Shown piece by piece: positions 1 to 10,401 of a DNA stretch of 10,401 bases (position 1 is the first letter of the stretch; every line of letters begins with the position of its first letter). The stretch comes from an uncultured Porphyromonas sp. (GTDB lineage Bacteria > Bacteroidota > Bacteroidia > Bacteroidales > Porphyromonadaceae): the NCBI GenBank assembly GCA_927910985.1, contig CAKMOP010000162.1, positions 1 to 10,401 on the forward strand. Direction: 5' to 3'. The translations under genes were made by a program, and so were the position numbers. Below the pieces are notes generated by a model. It made no database searches and was not told where the DNA came from. It saw nothing but the letters and a program-made list of their open reading frames with translations.

Positions 1-768
1 TGCCGGTGGTGATGGGGGTTAAGAGTTACGGGCAAGGGGCTGGTGCAGACGACGATGCAGCTGCCCTATGTGGGACGATCAAGCTCACCACTGCCAAGTA
101 CTACATCCCCAGCGGTCGCTGTATTCAGCGCATTGACTACCAGTCGATGCGCGAAGGTAAGGGGGCGAAGGTGCTTCCCGACAGCCTGACGAAGGTCTTC
201 CACACACGTGCTGGCCGTGAGGTGCGTGATGCAGGCGGCATCCTCCCCGATATTACGCTCACCAGTGACACGCTCCCGACGATGGTCTACTACCTGCGCT
301 TCAATAATGATGCCTTCGACTGGGTCACGGACTACGTGCGCAGTCACCGCTCCATCGCTTCGCCCCGTGACTTCCGCTTGACGGAAGCGGACTATGCGTC
401 CTTCTCCGAGCGACTCATCGAGAAGAAGTTCGACTACGACCGCCAGAGTGGTAAGGAGCTGCAGAAGCTCGAGGACTTGGCGAAGTTCGAGGGGTATTAC
501 AGCAAGAGTCGTGAAGCCTTTGAGACGCTGAAGAAGATTCTTGTGCCCGACCTCAAGCACGACTTGCAGGCACACCGCCCATTCATCGAGGAGTATCTGA
601 CCGGTGCCATCCTGACCCGCTACTATTATAATAGAGGTGCGCTGGAGCGTCGCGTCCCCGAACGACAAATAGGTGCGCGCTGCTATCGAGCTACTCGGCG
701 ACCCCGTGCGCTATGCTAAGACCCTGAGTACGCCTGAAGCTAAGCCAGCCTCTTCCCCTTCCAAGTAG
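1..768 (+). pseudogene. S41 carboxy-terminal processing protease, 3' part, with frame defects
   Basis: This is the C-terminal part of a CtpA/Tsp-like periplasmic serine protease (S41), which cleaves proteins near their C-termini with a Ser/Lys dyad. The gene enters from the left edge, so the PDZ domain and catalytic Ser are outside the window. The frame beginning at base 3 reads PVVMGVKSYG and then loses the family pattern. Removing the C at 33 restores GKGLVQTTMQLPY, including the catalytic Lys; adding one G near 70 then restores GGTIKLTTAKYYIPSGRCIQR, the typical S41 strand region. The frame stays open through a helical C-terminal tail with RYYYNRGALERRV. An extra G near 660 breaks it again; the expected continuation (VRAAIELLGDPVRYAKTL, stop 766-768) is present in the next frame, but a TAG at 670-672 precedes it. 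As written, the ORF stops at 719. The near-perfect conservation between defects means they are recent or are sequence errors. The next gene starts 4 bp after the restored stop. Confidence 0.82.
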
Positions 769-2453: not shown

Positions 2454-3845
2454 ATGCCTACGCAGGCCGAAAATACAGAGCGCATCGAGCGATTAGCGCA
2501 CGAGCGTATTCCCAAGCTCCTTCTTCACTATGGCGTCCCCGCGGTCGTCGGGACGATGGTCAATGCCCTCTACAGCGTCGTCGACCGCGTCTTCATCGGG
2601 CAGGGAGTCAGTGAGTTTGCCATTACAGGGCTTGCTCTGACCTTCCCTATCCTGATCTTTATCCAAGCCTTCGGTATGCTCATCGGGGTAGGGGCTTCGG
2701 CACGTGTGTCTATTCTCTTAGGAGAAGATAAGCACGACCAAGCCGAACGTATCCTGAGCAACGCACTCCTGCTCACGCTGGTCACTCAGCTACTGACCTT
2801 AGTCCCGGTAATGATCTGGCTGGAGGATATCCTTCGTGCGCTGGGGGCTAACGACCGAACGCTGCCCTTCGCTTATGATTATCTGAAGATCATGATCCCA
2901 GGGAATATCTTCTCGACCCTGTGCTTCAGCTTCAATGCGGTCATGCGTGCTTCAGGCTATCCCTACAAGGCGATGATCACGATGCTCATCGGGGCTGGGC
3001 TTAATACTGTCTTAGATGCGCTCTTCATTTATGGTTTTGGCTGGGGGATCGAAGGTGCAGCGTGGGCTACGGTCATCGCCATGGCCGTATCTGCAGCTTT
3101 CGTGATGCAACACTTTCTCGACAGTAAGAGCGAGGTGCAATTCCGCCGGCGCAATATGCGCTTCTCTGGCGAACAGATTCTTGCGATCCTCTCGATCGGG
3201 ATGTCCCCCTTCTTCCTGCAGCTCCTTAGTAGCGGGATTACCTTCCTCATCAACTCCACCTTAGCTCGCTATGCCGAGAACCCTCTGATGGCTGACCGCG
3301 CTGTAGGAGCTTATGGGATCATTAATAGTGCGGCACTTGTTGGCTTCATGATCATGCTTGGGATTGCTCAGGGGATGCAGCCTGTCGTAGGCTACAACTA
3401 TGGGGCGCGTGCTATGGGACGTGTGCGCCAGACCTTCAAGATCTGCTCGTGGATGAACTTCGGTATCGGCGCCTTCGTGACCCTGGTGGCGGTGGTTGCC
3501 CCAGGCTTGATTGCTTCTTTGTTCACCAGTTCTCCTGAGATGATCGAAGCCTCTGTGCACGCCCTTCGTCTCTGCCTCTATGGATTTGCTTTTGTAGGCT
3601 TCCAGGTCACAGCTACGCAGTTCTTCCAGAGCATAGGCTTTGGAGGGAAGGCGCTCCTGCTGAGCCTCTCGCGTCAAGTGCTGTTCTTACTCCCTGCGCT
3701 CTTCCTCTTCCCTCTGATGTGGGGGGCTACTGGGGTGTGGCTCGCCCTTCCCTTCTCGGATATCGCCGCAGGGGTGTTGGGGATGATTCTGATGAGCATC
3801 CAGTTCAAGCTCTTCGACCGAAAGTTTACTCCCGAAGGGCTGTAA
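2454..3845 (+). CDS. MATE-family multidrug exporter, MepA-like
   Basis: A 463-aa polytopic inner-membrane protein of the MATE family, which exports drugs or other organic cations using a Na+ or H+ gradient. The N-terminal half shows the MepA-like signature VPAVVGTMVNALYSVVDRVFIGQG (about 28-51, with Asp44), then TGLALTFPILIFIQAFGMLIGVGASARVSILLGE. The second half repeats the fold with QGMQPVVGYNYGA (about 306-318). About 12 hydrophobic segments and the length fit a complete protein. The frame is open upstream to 2376, but the ATG at 2454 is preferred: the upstream extension is polar, non-conserved-looking and abuts the terminator T-run. The metallophosphoesterase gene follows after 45 bp. The substrate cannot be deduced. 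Confidence 0.93.
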   Translation: MPTQAENTERIERLAHERIPKLLLHYGVPAVVGTMVNALYSVVDRVFIGQGVSEFAITGLALTFPILIFIQAFGMLIGVGASARVSILLGEDKHDQAERILSNALLLTLVTQLLTLVPVMIWLEDILRALGANDRTLPFAYDYLKIMIPGNIFSTLCFSFNAVMRASGYPYKAMITMLIGAGLNTVLDALFIYGFGWGIEGAAWATVIAMAVSAAFVMQHFLDSKSEVQFRRRNMRFSGEQILAILSIGMSPFFLQLLSSGITFLINSTLARYAENPLMADRAVGAYGIINSAALVGFMIMLGIAQGMQPVVGYNYGARAMGRVRQTFKICSWMNFGIGAFVTLVAVVAPGLIASLFTSSPEMIEASVHALRLCLYGFAFVGFQVTATQFFQSIGFGGKALLLSLSRQVLFLLPALFLFPLMWGATGVWLALPFSDIAAGVLGMILMSIQFKLFDRKFTPEGL

Positions 3846-3890: not shown

Positions 3891-5024
3891 ATGGTTTATT
3901 TGTACTCGGTACTCTGTTGCCTCTTCCTCTTCCCGTACCTCGGGTGGCGTGGTGGTCAAGTCTTGCCGGCAAGATTGCGCCGACTCTTCTGGGCAATACT
4001 CTTACTGATCTTCGTCCTCTTCTCCATCGCGCTCCTCGTGCATCGGCATATCGAAGCCGACTGGATGAGTGCGCTGATGAATGGGAGCGTGTACATCTTC
4101 TTCTCCACGCTCTACGTCACTGCCTTCATCGTCGGGGTGAATGTGCTGCGACATATCGATGAACGTACGCTGAGTCTCTATGCTTCGGCACGCCCTGCTG
4201 TCAAGCAATGGACGAAGGTGCTGACCTTCATCGTGTCTCTTGTCGTGTTTGTCGGGACAATGATCATAGGGCACCGCAACGTGCGCTATCCAAGGGTGAT
4301 TTATCGCTCGCTGGTCGTGCATCGCTTGACGCCCGAAGGGAAGAAGCCCGAGAAGCGTCTGCGCCTGGTCTTTTTCTCCGATCTGCATATTGGCGAGGCA
4401 ATGACCCCCGACTATATCGCACGGGCGGTCAAGCTCATTCAAGACCAGCATCCTGATCTCATCCTCTGTGGGGGCGACTTTATTGATCATCGTGCGGTCT
4501 ATGCCTATGACCCGAGAGTCCTGGCTTCACTTCGCTCACTCCGTGCCCCAATGGGTGTGTACTTTGTCTTGGGTAATCACGAATATCGGGATGATCTCGA
4601 GGCGAACATCCGCTTTGTCTCTGAGGTGGGGGCGACACTCCTCCGCGATAGCCTCGCTTATCCCGGGGATAGCCTCCTGACGCTCATCGGACGTGATGAC
4701 TTCGTGAATGGCGATCGAAAGCCTTTCGATGTGATCGCTAATGAAGCGGATCCCAAGCGTGGTCCCGTGGTGATGATGGAGCATACGCCTGCCTCCATCG
4801 ATAGTATCGGGGATAGTCCGGTGGACTTAATCCTCTGCGGGCACACGCACGGCGGACAGATTTGGCCAGGTCAGCTGATGGTGTGGTGGCGCTACGGGAT
4901 GGTCTCGGGTACGCACCCTGTGGGTAGTCGCGAGATCTGTATCTCCTCGGGCATCGGCTCCGCTGGAGCTACTTACCGCATCGGCACGCGCAGCGAGCTC
5001 TGCGTCTACGACCTCTACTGGTAG
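3891..5024 (+). CDS. Membrane-anchored calcineurin-like metallophosphoesterase, YkuE-like
   Basis: A 377-aa protein with about four N-terminal membrane segments (near 2-17, 34-50, 66-86 and 110-127) followed by a metallophosphoesterase domain (about 155-377). All binuclear metal motifs are present: SDLHIG (Asp164, His166), GGDFID (Asp196), GNHEY (Asn229, His230), EHTP (His298) and GHTHGGQ (His318, His320). This arrangement resembles YkuE-type enzymes, some of which act on membrane lipids or UDP-diacylglucosamine-like molecules; the substrate here is not determinable. The ATG at 3891 follows the MATE stop by 45 bp with no clear terminator, so the two may be co-transcribed. The end, a VYDLYW-like C-terminus, is complete. 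Confidence 0.93.
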   Translation: MVYLYSVLCCLFLFPYLGWRGGQVLPARLRRLFWAILLLIFVLFSIALLVHRHIEADWMSALMNGSVYIFFSTLYVTAFIVGVNVLRHIDERTLSLYASARPAVKQWTKVLTFIVSLVVFVGTMIIGHRNVRYPRVIYRSLVVHRLTPEGKKPEKRLRLVFFSDLHIGEAMTPDYIARAVKLIQDQHPDLILCGGDFIDHRAVYAYDPRVLASLRSLRAPMGVYFVLGNHEYRDDLEANIRFVSEVGATLLRDSLAYPGDSLLTLIGRDDFVNGDRKPFDVIANEADPKRGPVVMMEHTPASIDSIGDSPVDLILCGHTHGGQIWPGQLMVWWRYGMVSGTHPVGSREICISSGIGSAGATYRIGTRSELCVYDLYW

Positions 5025-5130
5025 CGGAGCTCATGTCGCCTTGCGCTACTCTGTGGGTGAACCTTACCTCCCTATTATTCAACTCGTAACGCAGATGTGT
5101 GCAAGGGTGTTATTGCACCTCTTTTATCTC

Positions 5131-5138
5131 TATCTTTG
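5131..5138 (+). promoter_or_regulatory. Probable -7 element of the transferase gene
   Basis: TATCTTTG matches the Bacteroidetes -7 consensus TAnnTTTG exactly, 46 bp before the ATG at 5185. The -33 element is weak (TGTT at 5108-5111, 19 bp away). A small inverted repeat, GTGCAA (5099-5104) and TTGCAC (5113-5118) with an 8-nt loop, covers the expected -33 region and could be an operator. Confidence 0.55.
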
Positions 5139-5184
5139 CAGTGAGCCTGTTTGCGCTATATAGTAAAGAATAAAGTCAAATAAT

Positions 5185-6940
5185 ATGGTCAGAAAGTTCC
5201 TACAACGGATGAGCGATTCGGCTTATGTCGCTCGTTTGGCGAAGACATTTCCTATCTTCGCTTTCATTCTTCTCCTGCAAGCTATCCTGTGCGTGCATCT
5301 GCTTTGGGCTGCTTCAGCAGTGCAGATGGGGATGAGGGTCTTCTTGCACTTCTTCTTCGTTGCAACTTTTAGATCTCTTTTCTGGGCTTCTCTTGCCTGG
5401 GCGTTGGTTGCCTGGGTGAAGTCTGAAGGTAGAAGGCGCTTCGTTGCGACTATCGTCGTGGTCCTTTTTAGTATACTGCATCTTTTTGAAAGTTACCTCT
5501 TAGGTAAGTATGGGGAAGGGTATACCTTTTCTGTTGTGACTGTCCTTATGGCAACGACTCCAGCGGAAAGTCATGAGTATCTGACTACGGTCTTCTCCCC
5601 TATGGATTTACTTCGCGGTGTCCTGGAAGTAGGGGTTGCCCTTCTACTTACGCTCTGGCTGATGAAGCGTTTGTGTAGTAGATTCTGCTCTATGGGTAAG
5701 CACCTATTGTGCATTTTGCTCATTATAATAGGGGTAGCCAATATTTGTAACCTTGCTATTTTCATGCCAAGAGTATATGAATATACCCAAACTTCTGGAG
5801 CTCCTATAGATGCTTTGCTGAGTCCGGTGGATCGTGTAATTTGGAATACTGGTCTTGCATATGGCGAGATCAATAAGATAGAGGCAAGGATTCATGAGAT
5901 TGAGCAGATTGATTTGGGTAACTTAGAGTCATCGCACCCCTATGGACAAATAAACGTAGTCGTTATTATCGGTGAGTCATTGAGACGAGACTATATGCAT
6001 TGCTATGGTTATCCTCTTGAGAATACTCCTAAATTAGATAGCCTAATTGCCGATGGATCGGTTGTAGCTTATTCGGATGTCATAAGCCCAGCCACGATGA
6101 CAGCGGAGTCTTTAACGAAGGTACTCACCTATCTTTCTCTTGGTTCAAAGGGGGGGGTGGTATGATTATCCCGCCTTGCCCAATGTCCTTTCTCGGAGTG
6201 GTTATGATACCTATTGGATGAGTAATCAGGAGGTGACGGGGACATATGTACAGCCAATTAATACAATTGCTCGTATGTCACAGGCTGTGCGATATCTCAA
6301 GATGAAAACGGGGAATGCAGACTATAATCCTATTGAAGCCAAGGGGCTTGATATGGAAGTCCTCCCTTATTTACGCAAGTCCGATCCTCGTAGTTCGAAG
6401 AGCTTTGTGCAATTTGTCCATCTAATGGGATCACACTTTGCTTATGAGAGACGCTATCCCAAGAGCTATGCTCGCTTCTCGAGTCGAGATATAAAGGCAA
6501 AGGGTGATAAGGTGCAGATTGCCGACTATGTCAATAGTGTTTACTATAATGATGATGTGGTTGCAAGCATTGTGAAGCACTATCAAGATGAGAAGACTTT
6601 ACTGTTCTATTTCTCGGACCATGGAGAGACGTTGTTTGATGGTGTAGGAGGGGATGGTGGTCGTGGCCATGGACGCTCAGAGCGGTCAAATGTTGAGATT
6701 CCTTTTATGGTATATGTCTCGCCTAAGTTGAGAGCGGAGTTCCCAGAGCTTTACGATCGGATCGTTCGCTGTAAGGATCGACCAATCGTGAATGACCTCT
6801 TCACGAATTCATTGCTGGCTCTTCTGGGGATCAAGAGTAAGTATAGTAACGAAAAACTGGAGTATTTCTCGGATGGCTATGATACTTCTCGCCCACGGAG
6901 ACCTGTGACGATGAATCGTAGCTTCTCTTACGAGAAGTAG
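5185..6940 (+). CDS. EptA-like phosphoethanolamine transferase, frameshifted at a G8 tract
   Basis: An inner-membrane sulfatase-fold enzyme of the EptA/YhjW type, which transfers phosphoethanolamine from phosphatidylethanolamine to lipid A, lowering negative charge. About five membrane segments (residues 22-190) precede the periplasmic catalytic domain. VVVIIGESLRRDYMHCYGYP gives the metal-binding Glu264, and ATMTAESL the probable nucleophile Thr306. As written, translation stops after SLGSKGGVV at residue 326 (stop 6163-6165). The rest lies in the next frame from a G8 run at 6150-6157: WYDYPALPNVL, VHLMGSHFAYE, FSDHGETLFD and GHGRSERSNVEIPFM, i.e. the remaining metal ligands. Deleting one G gives a continuous 584-aa protein of normal length, so the current state is off. 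The short product lacks the Asp/His metal ligands. The gene looks more AT-rich than its neighbours, especially after about 5690. Confidence 0.88.
6150..6157. repeat. G8 homopolymer in the transferase ORF (candidate phase switch)
   Basis: Eight consecutive G residues follow TTCAAA. Seven G read Ser-Lys-Gly-Gly-Trp-Tyr-Asp-Tyr and join the two halves of the transferase; eight G lead to a stop three codons later. The position is inside the catalytic domain, between the nucleophile Thr and the other metal ligands. It may be slipped-strand phase variation or a homopolymer sequencing error. Confidence 0.8.
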
Positions 6941-6960
6941 CTCGGGGAGCTCAGAGGTAG

Positions 6961-7015
6961 GAGCAACCGCGAGTCTGCTTACCTATGTGTAGCTGACGCG
7001 TGGTTGCTCTTGTTT
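6961..7015 (+). terminator. Possible terminator after the transferase
   Basis: GAGCAACC (6961-6968) pairs with GGTTGCTC (7002-7009), followed by TTGTTT. The loop of 33 nt contains further partial pairing (GCG with CGC next to the stem). It begins 20 bp after the transferase stop. The long loop and interrupted T-run make it a moderate candidate. Confidence 0.55.
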
Positions 7016-7175
7016 ATGTTGTCTACGCCTTCCTTCTTGCTTGTCTTGGAGAGTTACGAGGCTCTTTGCTGTGACTTTGTGTGTTTACAGGCAAGGGTTC
7101 TTCTTTCGAGGTGACTCATTAAGTGTGACGAAGTCAGAAGGGGGGCCGTAAGTATATAATCTGCTTGATTGATAT

Positions 7176-7766
7176 ATGCTCAAGAAACTATTTACTTTCG
7201 GGGCGGTCGTGTGCCTCGCATCGGCTACGGCTGTCGCTCAGGAAACCGCAACCTCGTCCTTCGGCGTCGAGCTCGGCGGTCGAAACGGCGTGTACTACGA
7301 GCGAGTGCTCAGCCCTCGCTTTAGCGTGACGGGCCGAGCCGGGCTATCGCTCGGCCTTGGGACGGCAAGCTCCAGCCATAAACTATCCTTCTCGGGGCTG
7401 ACTCCTTATGTGGAAGTCGCTCCTCGTTATTATTTCTCGGGAGCTTCCGAGACTGCTACCTACCATACGGGCGGTTACGTCGCCCTTCGTGGTGGCGTGC
7501 AGCTGGATAAGTGGACGCTCTTCCCGCCCACGAAGAGCAAGCACCTCTACCACAATACGACCTTCGAGCCAGCGGCTACCTATTGGGCGGCACCTACGGT
7601 CGGGTGGATCTTTGGGATTGGTCAGACCAGCTACCTCGGTCTCTCGCTCGGGGTGGGCTTCACGTGGACGCGCTACACGGCAGGCGATGAGACTTATTGG
7701 TCACGTTCGTCGCAGGGCTCAAAGTTCCCGCTACTCATAGGCTTTAACTACGGCTTCAGCTTGTAG
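7176..7766 (+). CDS. Small outer-membrane beta-barrel protein
   Basis: A 196-aa protein with a clear Sec signal peptide: MLKK, a hydrophobic core FGAVVCLASAT, and a likely cleavage after AVA (residue 21). The mature part has alternating aromatic/polar strands (GVELGGRNGVYYERVLSP, FSVTGRAGLSLGLG, PYVEVAPRYYF, TGGYVALRGGVQL, PTVGWIFGIGQTSYLGLSLGVGFTW) and ends in GFNYGFSL, a typical aromatic-containing last strand of an outer-membrane barrel. About eight strands fit an OmpA/OmpX-like small barrel; no specific family is recognised. The ATG at 7176 gives the signal peptide directly. A strong terminator follows 20 bp after the stop, so the gene ends its transcript. It sits 235 bp after the transferase; no convincing promoter was found between them. 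Confidence 0.85.
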   Translation: MLKKLFTFGAVVCLASATAVAQETATSSFGVELGGRNGVYYERVLSPRFSVTGRAGLSLGLGTASSSHKLSFSGLTPYVEVAPRYYFSGASETATYHTGGYVALRGGVQLDKWTLFPPTKSKHLYHNTTFEPAATYWAAPTVGWIFGIGQTSYLGLSLGVGFTWTRYTAGDETYWSRSSQGSKFPLLIGFNYGFSL

Positions 7767-7786
7767 CCGGATTTGCCGTACAGGTG

Positions 7787-7832
7787 CTGCGCCGCCTTAT
7801 CCTCCGTGGGTAAGGCGGCGCAGTGCGTTTTT
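7787..7832 (+). terminator. Rho-independent terminator of the barrel gene
   Basis: CTGCGCCGCCTTA (7787-7799) pairs perfectly with TAAGGCGGCGCAG (7811-7823) across 11 nt, followed by TGCG and TTTTT (7828-7832). It is a 13-bp GC-rich stem 20 bp after the stop codon. Confidence 0.93.
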
Positions 7833-7885
7833 CGGGGGGCTTTTCTGTTTGACGCGGTGTCGGGAATGCTCTTGCGCAAGGACCT

Positions 7886-8061
7886 ACATATAGGATGGCG
7901 AGCAAGTGGCTATTGGGTTGCACTCCATCCTATATTGCTTTGCTCACGAAGCTATATTGCTTCGCACTCGATCCTATATAGGTTCGCTGTCGAAGCAATA
8001 TAGGTTGGGACGCTAACCTATATTGCTTCGTCTTAAGACGGCTATTGGGCTGTATCTGATG
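7886..8061. repeat. 22-bp-periodic array of TATAT-centred quasi-palindromes
   Basis: Eight units of exactly 22 bp can be laid out from 7886. The clear central sites are ATCCTATATTGCTT, AAGCTATATTGCTT, ATCCTATATAGGTT, AAGCAATATAGGTT and AACCTATATTGCTT, each followed by an 8-bp spacer that varies. The outer units are degenerate; GGCTATTGGG occurs at 7908 and again at 8040, exactly 132 bp (6 x 22) apart. The sites behave as mosaics of two half-arms (AAGC/GCTT and AWCC/GGTT) around a TATAT core. Two adjacent sites are reverse complements, giving a perfect 16-bp inverted repeat (7991-8006 with 8015-8030, 8-nt loop). A 12-bp palindrome CGTCTTAAGACG lies at 8029-8040. The array ends about 190 bp before the lipoprotein operon promoter. 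Function unknown. Confidence 0.75.
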
Positions 8062-8200
8062 TCCTTGCCTCTGGTGCCGCCTCCTCCGTCTTTGGGCTTG
8101 AGTCCAGAGGCTGAATGGCGGGTGAACTGCGGATAAGTGCGCTTGTAAATTCTTAGTTACAGATCTGGATATTATAGATGTTTGTGCCTGTATTACAGTG
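8062..8200. other. Non-coding stretch with little structure
   Basis: This part of the 562-bp gap between the barrel gene and the small acidic ORF holds no supportable gene. CCTCTGG (8068-8074) and CCAGAGG (8104-8110) form a 7-bp inverted repeat with a 29-nt loop. After about 8140 the sequence becomes AT-rich, as expected upstream of a promoter. The 53 bp between the terminator and the array (7833-7885) likewise show nothing but a G6 run. Confidence 0.5.
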
Positions 8201-8227
8201 GTTTACCTTGCGGGGGGGGGGGTAAAC
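8201..8227. repeat. G11 tract inside a GTTTACC/GGTAAAC inverted repeat
   Basis: Eleven consecutive G residues (8212-8222) sit between GTTTACC (8201-8207) and GGTAAAC (8221-8227), which are exact reverse complements; the last two G belong to the right arm. The tract ends 27 bp before the -33 element of the promoter at 8250-8280. A change in G number would alter the spacing between anything bound upstream and the promoter. Confidence 0.85.
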
Positions 8228-8249
8228 GAATGTAAATACTTGGAGGTGC

Positions 8250-8280
8250 TTTGGCGTTTGCTGTGGAGTAGTTACCTTTG
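8250..8280 (+). promoter_or_regulatory. Promoter of the small ORF-lipoprotein operon
   Basis: TTTG (8250-8253), a 19-bp spacer and TACCTTTG (8273-8280) match the Bacteroidetes consensus TTTG-N19-TAnnTTTG at every specified base. Transcription should start near 8287, leaving a leader of about 40 nt before the ATG at 8329. The G11 tract lies immediately upstream. Confidence 0.78.
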
Positions 8281-8328
8281 CAAAAATTTTAAGCAAACGC
8301 GAATTCGTTTAGACTAAGACCCCGAATC

Positions 8329-8466
8329 ATGTTTTTGAAAGAAGAGTATCAGCGACCAGTCGTAGAGCTGATGCGAGTGCTTGTGCCATCAGTGTTGGTG
8401 CAGTTTAGTGTTCCCAGTGAAGAGAAAGTAGAAGTAGAAGGTTATGAATTCGATGATGACTTTTAG
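8329..8466 (+). CDS. Small acidic protein upstream of surface lipoprotein
   Basis: A 45-aa ORF: a start MFLKEEYQRPVVELMRVLVP, a hydrophobic stretch (LVPSVLVQFSVP), and an acidic end with EEKVEVEGYEFDDDF. The YxxPxVExxxV-like start followed by an acidic tail resembles small uncharacterised Bacteroidales ORFs often found just before fimbrillin-like or other surface lipoproteins; this comparison is from memory and is not a family assignment. It is the first ORF after a well-matched promoter and overlaps the lipoprotein start by 23 nt in another frame, which suggests translational coupling. No signal peptide or catalytic motif is visible. Confidence 0.65.
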   Translation: MFLKEEYQRPVVELMRVLVPSVLVQFSVPSEEKVEVEGYEFDDDF

Positions 8467-10401
8467 ACGTGTATTGGGTGGCCTCTGTGTCGCCGTCTGC
8501 TTGGGTGCACAGTCTTGCCGCCAAGAAGCCGCTGAGCCTACCGCAAAGCAATCCCCAGTAAAGGAAACGGTTTATAAAGAAGGTAATATTGAGCTACCCT
8601 TGTATGCTGATCTTGGTGTCGACCTCTCGGAGGAAACGAATCAGCTGAAGGCGCTGGATGCCACTGTCGGCACTCAGAAGGATGCTCGAGGACGTCTGTC
8701 GGTGGGCTATGGAGATAAGTTCCCCGTGGTCTGTATCATCCGCAGTGATCAGAATGACCCCATCACGTATATAGATGATGTGGAAGCCGTCAAGCAACAA
8801 AATGGTGTCTACCAGCTGAACAAGGAGCGCGTCCATTTGGCTGCGGGCTCTGCCTTGGCAGCAGGCAAGAAGTGGTATATGATGGTCGTGACCAAGAATA
8901 GCTTCAATAAGAATAATGGTGAGCTATCTGTTAGTGCTAATGGTGATGCCGAGACACTGAAAGCAGGCGCTACGCGCGTGATGGACATCCCAGCAGCTTC
9001 GGCTTGGATCGAACTGCCTACGTTCGCTAACGGTCAACCTAAGTGGCCAAAGGACTGGACCGATGCACGTCGGCAGGCCAAGCTCACGCTCTATCCTCAG
9101 GGCGTCCTCTGCCGTGCTACCCTTCGTCTCGATAATGACTATAAAGCAAAGCTCGGGAATAATAGTGTAGATCTGAAGGTCACACAGCTGAAGGTCGTCT
9201 CGACGGCACTGAGCTTCTCGGGTAAGTTCAAGTTCGATGAGGCTTCTCTTCCTCCTCTTTCGCAGACTTCGGGTCGCCCAACTATCGCCTGGGAGGCAAC
9301 TCAGACTGCGAGCGCTGCCCGCGAATATCGCTCGCTGGATGCAAATACGCCAGAGTATCAGAAGGTCTTCAATGCGCCTGCTGGTGGTGCTGTGCTGCAG
9401 GTGAGCGGTAGCGGGTCTACGGCAGCTCTCTTCTCGGATAGTAATAGCCCCACTAAGGTGGAGAATAAAGTGCTGCAGGACGGTGTGCAGTCCATCCTCT
9501 TCTGGGCTGTCCCTGTGAAGGGAGCTACGAATCGCCATACGACGCTGATTGCTGAGGCGGGATCGAGCTCTTTGGGTGAAGTCCTTCAGCCTTCGCATAC
9601 CTATATCTATGGTAAGAAGCATACGAAGGATGCTAAGCCTGGGAGCGTCGTCTCCTTCGATGCCGTGTACTACAACCCATATACCCCGCTGGACTATATG
9701 GCGGAGTATAACGTGGCGCGCAAGAACCCGGAGCAGTTCTATCCTAAGGGGACGATTCCAAATGGTTCGTCTAATCAATTGGATGGAAGCCACGGGATAA
9801 ATTCATTTACGTTCTTGCCTTGGGAAGAAGTCAAAAAGGTTTCTCTTTCTTCTGGAGGGCGAACCTATGTTTCCCCCACGCATGCACAGTGGAGTAGTAT
9901 TATTCCATATGAAGGTGCAGCTGCAATTAATACGGTTGGGGGTCCTGATGTTGATAATGCCGATGTTGAGGCTGAGGTTGGACAGCTTAAGAGCTGGACA
10001 GAGTTCTCTTCTCGGAAAAACCCTAAAGCTAATATCCGTTATGCTTTAGCCTTAACAAACTTAGGTGGATCTCAGAAGTATCGTACAGCGTATAGGTATA
10101 AGATGGAATATGGCGCACCTAATCAGACGACCATAGCATCAAGGTATATAGAGATAGGCTCAGAGGTTATTTTGAGGAATGTGCAGAATCGACAGCCTCC
10201 TTATATTAGATTCCAGTCACAGTTTTCTGGAAATGGAGCATGGGCTACCTTCCCTTATTTAGTTCTTGAGATACAGGCCGTGCAGCTTGGGGCTGGGTTT
10301 GTCGGTACGGTTGATGATATTGCCAACGAGGATTTTTGGGCTAATACAGCAAATCAGCGTAAGGATAAGCGTGTGCTTCCTGCTAATTATACGACCTATA
10401 A
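8444..10401 (+). CDS. Large surface lipoprotein, fimbrial accessory/FISUMP-like (3' partial)
   Basis: The frame is open for 652 codons from the ATG at 8444 to the right edge, so the C-terminus is missing. The N-terminus (MTFRRVLGGLCVAVCLGAQSC) is a lipoprotein signal with Cys25 as the probable acylated residue; in-frame ATGs at 8453 and 8456 are alternative starts. Residues about 45-380 look like beta-rich modules with no motif I recognise. From about 411 the sequence NPYTPLDYMAEYNVARKNP, then SFTFLPWEEVKKV and HAQWSSIIPYEG resembles the C-terminal module of Porphyromonas fimbrial accessory proteins and FISUMP domains (compare LPSxEEWxxIIP), continuing with IRYALAL and YRTAYRYKMEYG. It is probably exported to the outer-membrane surface, perhaps as a fimbrial tip or accessory subunit. 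Codon use shifts to AT-rich codons (TTA, ATA, AGG) after about 9760. The start overlaps the preceding small ORF. Confidence 0.75.
   Translation, partial: MNSMMTFRRVLGGLCVAVCLGAQSCRQEAAEPTAKQSPVKETVYKEGNIELPLYADLGVDLSEETNQLKALDATVGTQKDARGRLSVGYGDKFPVVCIIRSDQNDPITYIDDVEAVKQQNGVYQLNKERVHLAAGSALAAGKKWYMMVVTKNSFNKNNGELSVSANGDAETLKAGATRVMDIPAASAWIELPTFANGQPKWPKDWTDARRQAKLTLYPQGVLCRATLRLDNDYKAKLGNNSVDLKVTQLKVVSTALSFSGKFKFDEASLPPLSQTSGRPTIAWEATQTASAAREYRSLDANTPEYQKVFNAPAGGAVLQVSGSGSTAALFSDSNSPTKVENKVLQDGVQSILFWAVPVKGATNRHTTLIAEAGSSSLGEVLQPSHTYIYGKKHTKDAKPGSVVSFDAVYYNPYTPLDYMAEYNVARKNPEQFYPKGTIPNGSSNQLDGSHGINSFTFLPWEEVKKVSLSSGGRTYVSPTHAQWSSIIPYEGAAAINTVGGPDVDNADVEAEVGQLKSWTEFSSRKNPKANIRYALALTNLGGSQKYRTAYRYKMEYGAPNQTTIASRYIEIGSEVILRNVQNRQPPYIRFQSQFSGNGAWATFPYLVLEIQAVQLGAGFVGTVDDIANEDFWANTANQRKDKRVLPANYTTY

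What the first reader, a model, noticed from the sequence alone, without database searches (positions are those of the whole stretch)
6140..6165. Eight-G tract may switch a lipid A phosphoethanolamine transferase on and off
The G8 run at 6150-6157 splits an otherwise intact EptA-like gene. Seven G (or ten) give one continuous 584-aa enzyme with all expected metal ligands; eight give a 326-residue product lacking most of them. No other defect is visible in the gene. A slippery tract inside the catalytic domain is the classic form of slipped-strand phase variation, and here it would toggle surface charge and sensitivity to cationic antimicrobial peptides. I know of no described phase-variable EptA in Porphyromonas, but cannot search. 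A homopolymer sequencing error is the main alternative.
Basis: partly seen in the sequence, partly recalled or inferred. Interest (0 to 1): 0.78.

Follow-up and report, generated by a model that had tools for sequence, protein, structure and literature searches.

The report
Broken surface-charge gene at G tract
A gene for an enzyme that decorates the bacterial surface is cut in two by a run of eight Gs in a Porphyromonas-like genome, while an intact, nearly identical copy is known; this fits a genetic on/off switch of a type already known from Neisseria, but a lasting mutation or a sequencing error is not excluded.

Summary
The G8 run (6150-6157) is real and lies where one phosphoethanolamine-transferase gene changes frame (N piece 5185-6165; C-piece frame 6140-6940). 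The pieces are 98.1% and 99.6% identical to an intact 584-aa database protein, P0037, and show no other defect. The nearest solved relative is EptC, then MCR-1, so 'lipid A EptA' is too specific. Reversible slipped-strand switching is the single most likely reading (0.43) but is not shown: no second tract length was seen, none of 32 relatives' ORFs has the tract, and long G/C runs are not significantly enriched in the family. A second frame break in the window, in a peptidase gene and not at a long homopolymer, keeps assembly error or decay alive. The gene is accessory: synteny with the nearest held genome ends just before it. The same segment has an intergenic G11 run near a promoter-like site. 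Neisseria eptA and pptA are direct precedents, so this is at most a new member of a known kind.

The parts
5185..6165 (+). N-terminal piece of a phosphoethanolamine-transferase gene (membrane part, conserved E and catalytic-type T); stops just after the G tract; 326 aa
6150..6157 (+). G8 tract at the frame break, in the variable loop between the catalytic-type Thr and the conserved W-Y-x-Y-P
6140..6940 (+). open frame holding the C-terminal piece (later metal-ligand residues, Sulfatase profile 80-301); searched from 6161
3891..5024 (+). metallophosphoesterase gene just upstream; last gene shared in order with the nearest held genome (G482)
8212..8222 (+). intergenic G11 tract followed by TAAA; same accessory segment
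8250..8280 (+). promoter-like site TTTG-N19-TACCTTTG (Bacteroidota motif, recalled) between the G11 and the 8444 gene
8444..10399 (+). putative lipoprotein gene (signal-like N-terminus by reading), no family match, runs off the window
3..719 (+). C-terminal-processing-peptidase-like gene whose conserved tail lies in another frame: second frame break of the window, not at a long homopolymer

Best explanation
An accessory EptC/CptA-like phosphoethanolamine transferase gene of a Porphyromonas-like bacterium carries a G8 tract in a variable, often glycine-containing loop. In this sequence the gene is out of frame at the tract, so the product ends before the D478, H479 and H495 metal-ligand residues and should be inactive. 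Slippage of the tract during replication would reversibly restore or remove the frame, so that part of the population decorates its lipopolysaccharide (lipid A or core) with phosphoethanolamine and part does not. Shown: the tract, the frame break, the sound state of both pieces, and an intact near-identical protein elsewhere. Inferred: that the tract is what differs between the two states, that the change is reversible and frequent, the substrate, and the effect on surface charge.
For: The break lies at the tract. Both pieces are free of other defects and 98.1% / 99.6% identical to intact P0037, the head of a cluster of 73 member sequences, so any loss is recent. The loop is variable between conserved blocks and holds Gly in several relatives. 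Same architecture in Neisseria: pptA has a G tract coding glycine, switching in about 1 of 100 colonies, and the commonest working tract there is also short (PMC3656113, passages); Neisseria eptA has a homopolymeric tract in its ORF (PMC10525099, passages). A related gene in G801 carries an in-frame C9 in its linker (L053). The accessory segment also carries an intergenic G11.
Against: No DNA of a second tract length was available. Of 32 relatives' ORFs examined, none has the tract at this site and one has any G/C run of eight or more. Two genes with such runs among 33 (window included, and chosen for its run) is not significant: expected 0.62, P about 0.13. GGG is an ordinary glycine codon here (69 of 209 outside the tract). 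In Neisseria pptA an in-frame form with one more glycine was inactive (PMC3656113, passage), so glycine tolerance of such a loop cannot be assumed. The peptidase gene of the same window is also frame-broken, away from any long homopolymer. Other family members are broken with no long G/C run nearby (L055) or end in foreign-frame tails of unknown cause (P0122, P0128).
Confidence: 0.43

Rival explanations
1. A lasting loss-of-function mutation: slippage at an incidental G run broke this gene once in this strain; there is no regular switching.
For: The tract is private to this gene among those examined. G/C runs of eight or more occur about 23 times per genome in the genus, without significant enrichment in this family. 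The family is multi-copy and often broken: G785's copy lies in two frames with no G/C run of seven or more near it, P0122 and P0128 end in foreign-frame tails, G795 and G801 hold fragments.
Against: No second defect has accumulated in either piece; a change in a homopolymer can also revert easily (general knowledge).
Confidence: 0.29
2. Sequencing or assembly error at the homopolymer; the real gene is intact.
For: Homopolymers are the usual place for such errors (general knowledge); the peptidase gene has its conserved tail in another frame with several clustered differences; P0037 is intact.
Against: FHA, L28, MATE and metallophosphoesterase align with G482 in single unbroken matches (MATE from residue 27), so the error rate is not generally high.
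Confidence: 0.24
3. Programmed recoding or transcriptional slippage at the G run makes some full-length enzyme from the same DNA.
For: A G run can be slippery (general knowledge).
Against: The tract is not found in relatives, and the surrounding RNA folds no better than shuffles (z 0.21).
Confidence: 0.04

Closest known systems
Neisseria pptA (pilin phosphorylcholine transferase), phase variable by a poly-G tract
   Same: G tract inside the coding region, coding glycine, of similar length (PMC3656113 and PMC10434233, passages). Membership of the phosphoethanolamine-transferase family is recalled; a review of that family cites it (reference list).
   Different: Acts on pilin; tract variation and switching are demonstrated there, not here. 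Whether the tract lies at the same place in the fold was not tested.
Neisseria eptA (lptA), lipid A phosphoethanolamine transferase with a homopolymeric tract in its ORF
   Same: Phosphoethanolamine transferase with a homopolymer in the ORF (PMC10525099, passages).
   Different: Different phylum; the enzyme here scores nearer EptC/CptA than EptA.
EptC/CptA (PDB 5zzu, 6a82, 6a83)
   Same: Best sequence match among solved structures, E 4e-34, over most of the catalytic domain.
   Different: No tract known to me; E. coli EptC acts on core heptose (recalled). The substrate here is unknown.
Capnocytophaga canimorsus EptA
   Same: A Bacteroidota lipid A phosphoethanolamine transferase affecting polymyxin B sensitivity (PMC4730577, passages).
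   Different: The paper's text holds no word beginning with 'phase'.

Membership tests
Phosphoethanolamine transferase (EptA/EptC/CptA/MCR) family | Sulfatase-like catalytic domain (PF00884) | tested here: met
   N piece 47.1 bits, C piece 108 bits, cut-off 25; P0037 162.2 bits
Phosphoethanolamine transferase (EptA/EptC/CptA/MCR) family | Conserved Glu, Thr nucleophile and Asp/His metal ligands | tested here: met
   E264, T306, H412, H417, D478, H479 invariant in 63 aligned sequences and H495 nearly so; all present, split between the two pieces. Their roles are recalled from EptA/MCR structures.
Phosphoethanolamine transferase (EptA/EptC/CptA/MCR) family | N-terminal EptA_B_N membrane domain | tested here: inconclusive
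   N piece 19.9 bits against cut-off 22.3; not listed for P0037 at E 0.001
Lipid A-specific EptA / MCR | Curated EptA or MCR model cut-offs reached | tested here: not met
   P0037: EptA models 82.1 and 60.4 bits against 561 and 660; MCR-1 52.8 against 1100
CptA/EptC | Curated CptA model cut-offs reached | tested here: not met
   best of all models, but 204.7 against 404 and 181.9 against 900
Slipped-strand phase-variable gene | Homopolymer in the ORF at the frame break | tested here: met
Slipped-strand phase-variable gene | Open and broken forms both exist in the species | tested here: inconclusive
   window broken; P0037 intact and near-identical. That P0037 is of the same species is inferred from identity alone.
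Slipped-strand phase-variable gene | Tract length varies between clones or strains | not testable with these tools
   no DNA for P0037 or other strains; no held genome has the gene above 50% identity
Slipped-strand phase-variable gene | Tract conserved or recurrent in relatives | tested here: not met
   0 of 32 relatives' ORFs have it at the site; one has a C9 elsewhere

The most novel reading that the evidence does not exclude
This Porphyromonas-like lineage uses poly-G contingency loci: on one accessory surface-gene segment an ORF tract switches a phosphoethanolamine transferase, while an intergenic G11 beside a promoter tunes a putative lipoprotein, so that single cells combine surface charge and surface protein at random. 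Poly-G followed by TAAA, found in 17 of 26 genomes of the genus (33 matches against 6 for the reversed control), would be a recurring form of intergenic tract there, though only 2 of the 31 such sites read have the promoter pattern downstream.
Probability: 0.2. Interest if true: 0.6.

Novelty: new member of a known kind. Interest (0 to 1): 0.4.

Why it matters
If the tract switches, it would be an independent origin of homopolymer control over a phosphoethanolamine transferase outside Neisseria, in a genus for which the listings seen here name no such switch. It would predict mixed surface charge and mixed susceptibility to cationic peptides inside one population. If it does not switch, the case is a caution about reading one homopolymer frameshift as a switch.

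Tried and rejected
Own genome: none held. The genome-contig scan gave 4 distant loci. One viral-contig scan found none. Phylum, order, genus and family were searched stepwise: 18 of 395, 79 of 393, 23 of 26 and 23 of 38 genomes matched. Short database proteins matching each piece were looked at for an 'off' form of the same species: among those covering at least 80% of the query, none is above 64% identity to the N piece or 71% to the C piece; shorter forms may be hidden inside the 90% clusters, so this is inconclusive. GGG codon rarity as a sign of selection: rejected, GGG is common. Recoding signal: none. Enrichment of long G/C runs in the family: not significant. The window's metallophosphoesterase, 7176 and 8444 genes beside relatives' copies: no match at E 1e-8 in the loci then held, most with 1.5-kb flanks. 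An in-frame ATG of the C piece directly after the N stop: none seen; the next lies well inside the piece (reading; other start codons not excluded). A general promoter role of poly-G-TAAA: not supported.

Papers. Seen as passages only: PMC10525099, PMC3656113, PMC4730577, PMC10434233, PMC3711429; the others as search listings with title and start of abstract only. Statements that a thing is not reported rest on those listings in an open-licence library alone.

Full report
What was checked. The finding says that a run of eight G splits an otherwise intact EptA-like gene. The sequence confirms it. G8 stands at 6150-6157. An ORF of 326 residues from 5185 ends at 6165, eight bases after the run, and a second open frame on the same strand covers 6140-6940. 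Searched apart, the N piece matches the start of Pfam Sulfatase (profile 2-61) and, below the cut-off, the EptA/EptB membrane domain; the C piece matches the rest of Sulfatase (80-301). Both match CptA best among NCBIfam models, below all cut-offs. This is one gene that changes frame at the tract.

Is the rest of the gene sound? Intact relatives were found with a natural relative as query (133 proteins, 120 listed, from the 7996 best-sharing candidates). One of them, P0037 (584 aa, a cluster of 73 member sequences), is 98.1% identical to the N piece and 99.6% to the C piece: six and one differences over 324 and 259 residues. The residues that are invariant or nearly so in 63 aligned relatives and correspond to the expected catalytic and metal sites are present: Glu264 and Thr306 in the N piece; His412, His417, Asp478, His479 and His495 in the C piece (the roles are recalled from EptA and MCR). 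The short N product therefore lacks most ligands. A near-identical intact protein exists, and the broken gene has not decayed further.

What enzyme is it? By sequence the nearest solved structure is EptC (5zzu, E 4e-34), then MCR-1 (E 1e-13). No NCBIfam model reaches its cut-off, CptA being best. 'Phosphoethanolamine transferase' is well supported; 'lipid A' as the target is not.

Where is the tract in the protein? Aligned with relatives, it lies in a loop of variable sequence between the catalytic-type Thr and a conserved W-Y-x-Y-P block; several relatives have a Gly there. Such a loop may tolerate change, but in Neisseria pptA an in-frame form with one more glycine was inactive (PMC3656113, passage).

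Whose genome is it? None is held. Stepwise searches reached one genus of mostly 1.8-2.5-Mb genomes in which 23 of 26 have at least one match at E 0.001, distant paralogues included, and 0 of 12 genomes from the rest of the family. The peptidase gene of the window is 83% identical to that of G482 and 77% to G795. The nearest held copies of the transferase are at most 50% identical (C piece) or 45% (P0037).

The gene is accessory. In G482 the order peptidase - FHA - L28 - MATE - metallophosphoesterase is that of the window, at 82-100% identity; in the 14-kb stretch fetched no counterpart of the transferase, the 7176 gene or the 8444 gene follows at E 1e-4, and ribosomal-protein-like genes come next (those names are from reading the translations). 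In the stretches fetched from G795 and G785 the peptidase and FHA genes are shared, with only a distant MATE (27%) in G795. GC is 0.44-0.46 over the transferase against 0.49-0.58 in the windows before it. G482 has other copies of the family elsewhere.

Does the tract recur? Of 32 relatives' ORFs given to the script (the 30 loci of that family then held from the genus, plus L036 and L037; other matches listed had no locus or lay in other genera), none has a G run at this site. One, L053 of G801, has a C9 in frame in the linker before the catalytic domain. A plain search of the loci then held found G8 on either strand in only two of L001-L078: L053, and L036 in its flank. Five further stretches fetched later have no G/C run of seven or more. 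Across 26 genomes of the genus there are 599 G/C runs of eight or more in about 55.8 Mb (rounded genome sizes): 0.11 per 10.4 kb, 0.019 per gene of this size. Two genes with such runs among 33 is not beyond chance (expected 0.62, P about 0.13), the more so as the window was chosen for its run. Two runs in this window is less expected (P about 0.006; shuffles agree), because of the G11 at 8212-8222. GGG is a common glycine codon in the window (69 of 209 outside the tract), so the tract needs no special selection to exist.

The G11. It lies between the 7176 and 8444 genes, is followed by TAAA, and ends 27 bases before TTTG-N19-TACCTTTG, a match to the Bacteroidota promoter motif (recalled). Of one G9-or-longer tract taken from each of the 26 genomes, 16 lie outside any stop-to-stop frame of 150 aa or more (frames, not genes). 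G8 followed by TAAA was found 33 times in 17 of 26 genomes, against 6 for the reversed control (summed by hand). Among the 31 such sites read only the window's and one other (L148) have the promoter pattern downstream within 300 bases, so a general promoter role is not supported.

Evidence for error or decay. The peptidase gene at 3-719 ends in a tail unlike its relatives', and the tail that matches them is in another frame. That break is not at a long homopolymer. FHA, L28, MATE (from residue 27) and metallophosphoesterase align with G482 in single unbroken matches, so the sequence is not generally poor, but one extra break in 10 kb keeps error or decay alive. The family is also often broken elsewhere: G785 has one copy in two frames with no G/C run of seven or more in its locus; P0122 and P0128 seem to end in foreign-frame tails, and P0123 and P0133 both leave frame after the same Asn-Phe-Phe. 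The causes cannot be read from proteins alone.

Known precedents. [quoted passage not shown] Neisseria pptA has a G tract coding glycine inside the coding region, switching in about 1 of 100 colonies (PMC3656113, passages). So a tract of about this length can switch, in an enzyme that I recall as a member of the same family. By title and start of abstract, no listing described such a switch in Porphyromonas; most subscription journals are outside that library.

Verdict. If true it is a new member of a known kind.

Noticed in passing
window 8212-8222: Intergenic G11 run followed by TAAA, flanked by GTTTAC/GTAAAC, ending 27 bases before a TTTG-N19-TACCTTTG promoter-like site ahead of a putative lipoprotein gene; by length a better candidate contingency tract than the G8.
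   Followed up: partly
genus of G482 (26 genomes), loci L139-L168: G8 or longer followed by TAAA is over-represented (33 matches against 6 for the reversed control), often in A/T-rich flanks; role unknown, some at contig ends.
   Followed up: partly
window 3-719: Peptidase (CTP-like) gene: conserved C-terminal tail lies in another frame, with clustered differences from relatives.
   Followed up: yes
window 5025-10401: Gene order shared with the nearest held genome (G482) ends after the metallophosphoesterase; transferase, 7176 and 8444 genes are accessory, the transferase being lower in GC.
   Followed up: yes
P0058 against P0037: Last 34 residues identical and 98% in the 50 before, while the other 50-residue blocks are 28-86%: mosaic genes, probably recombination between family members.
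   Followed up: partly
L169 (G795:C10) 573-2150 and 3416-3745; L170 (G801:C10) 1858-2106: Partial extra copies (3' end or internal piece) of the transferase family, possible recombination donors or remnants.
   Followed up: partly
L053 (G801:C72) 2487-2495: C9 run (gene strand) in frame in the linker of an intact related transferase.
   Followed up: partly
   Followed up: no
L098 1501-1511: C11 run where two plus-strand frames overlap, as in a possible phase-variable gene.
   Followed up: no
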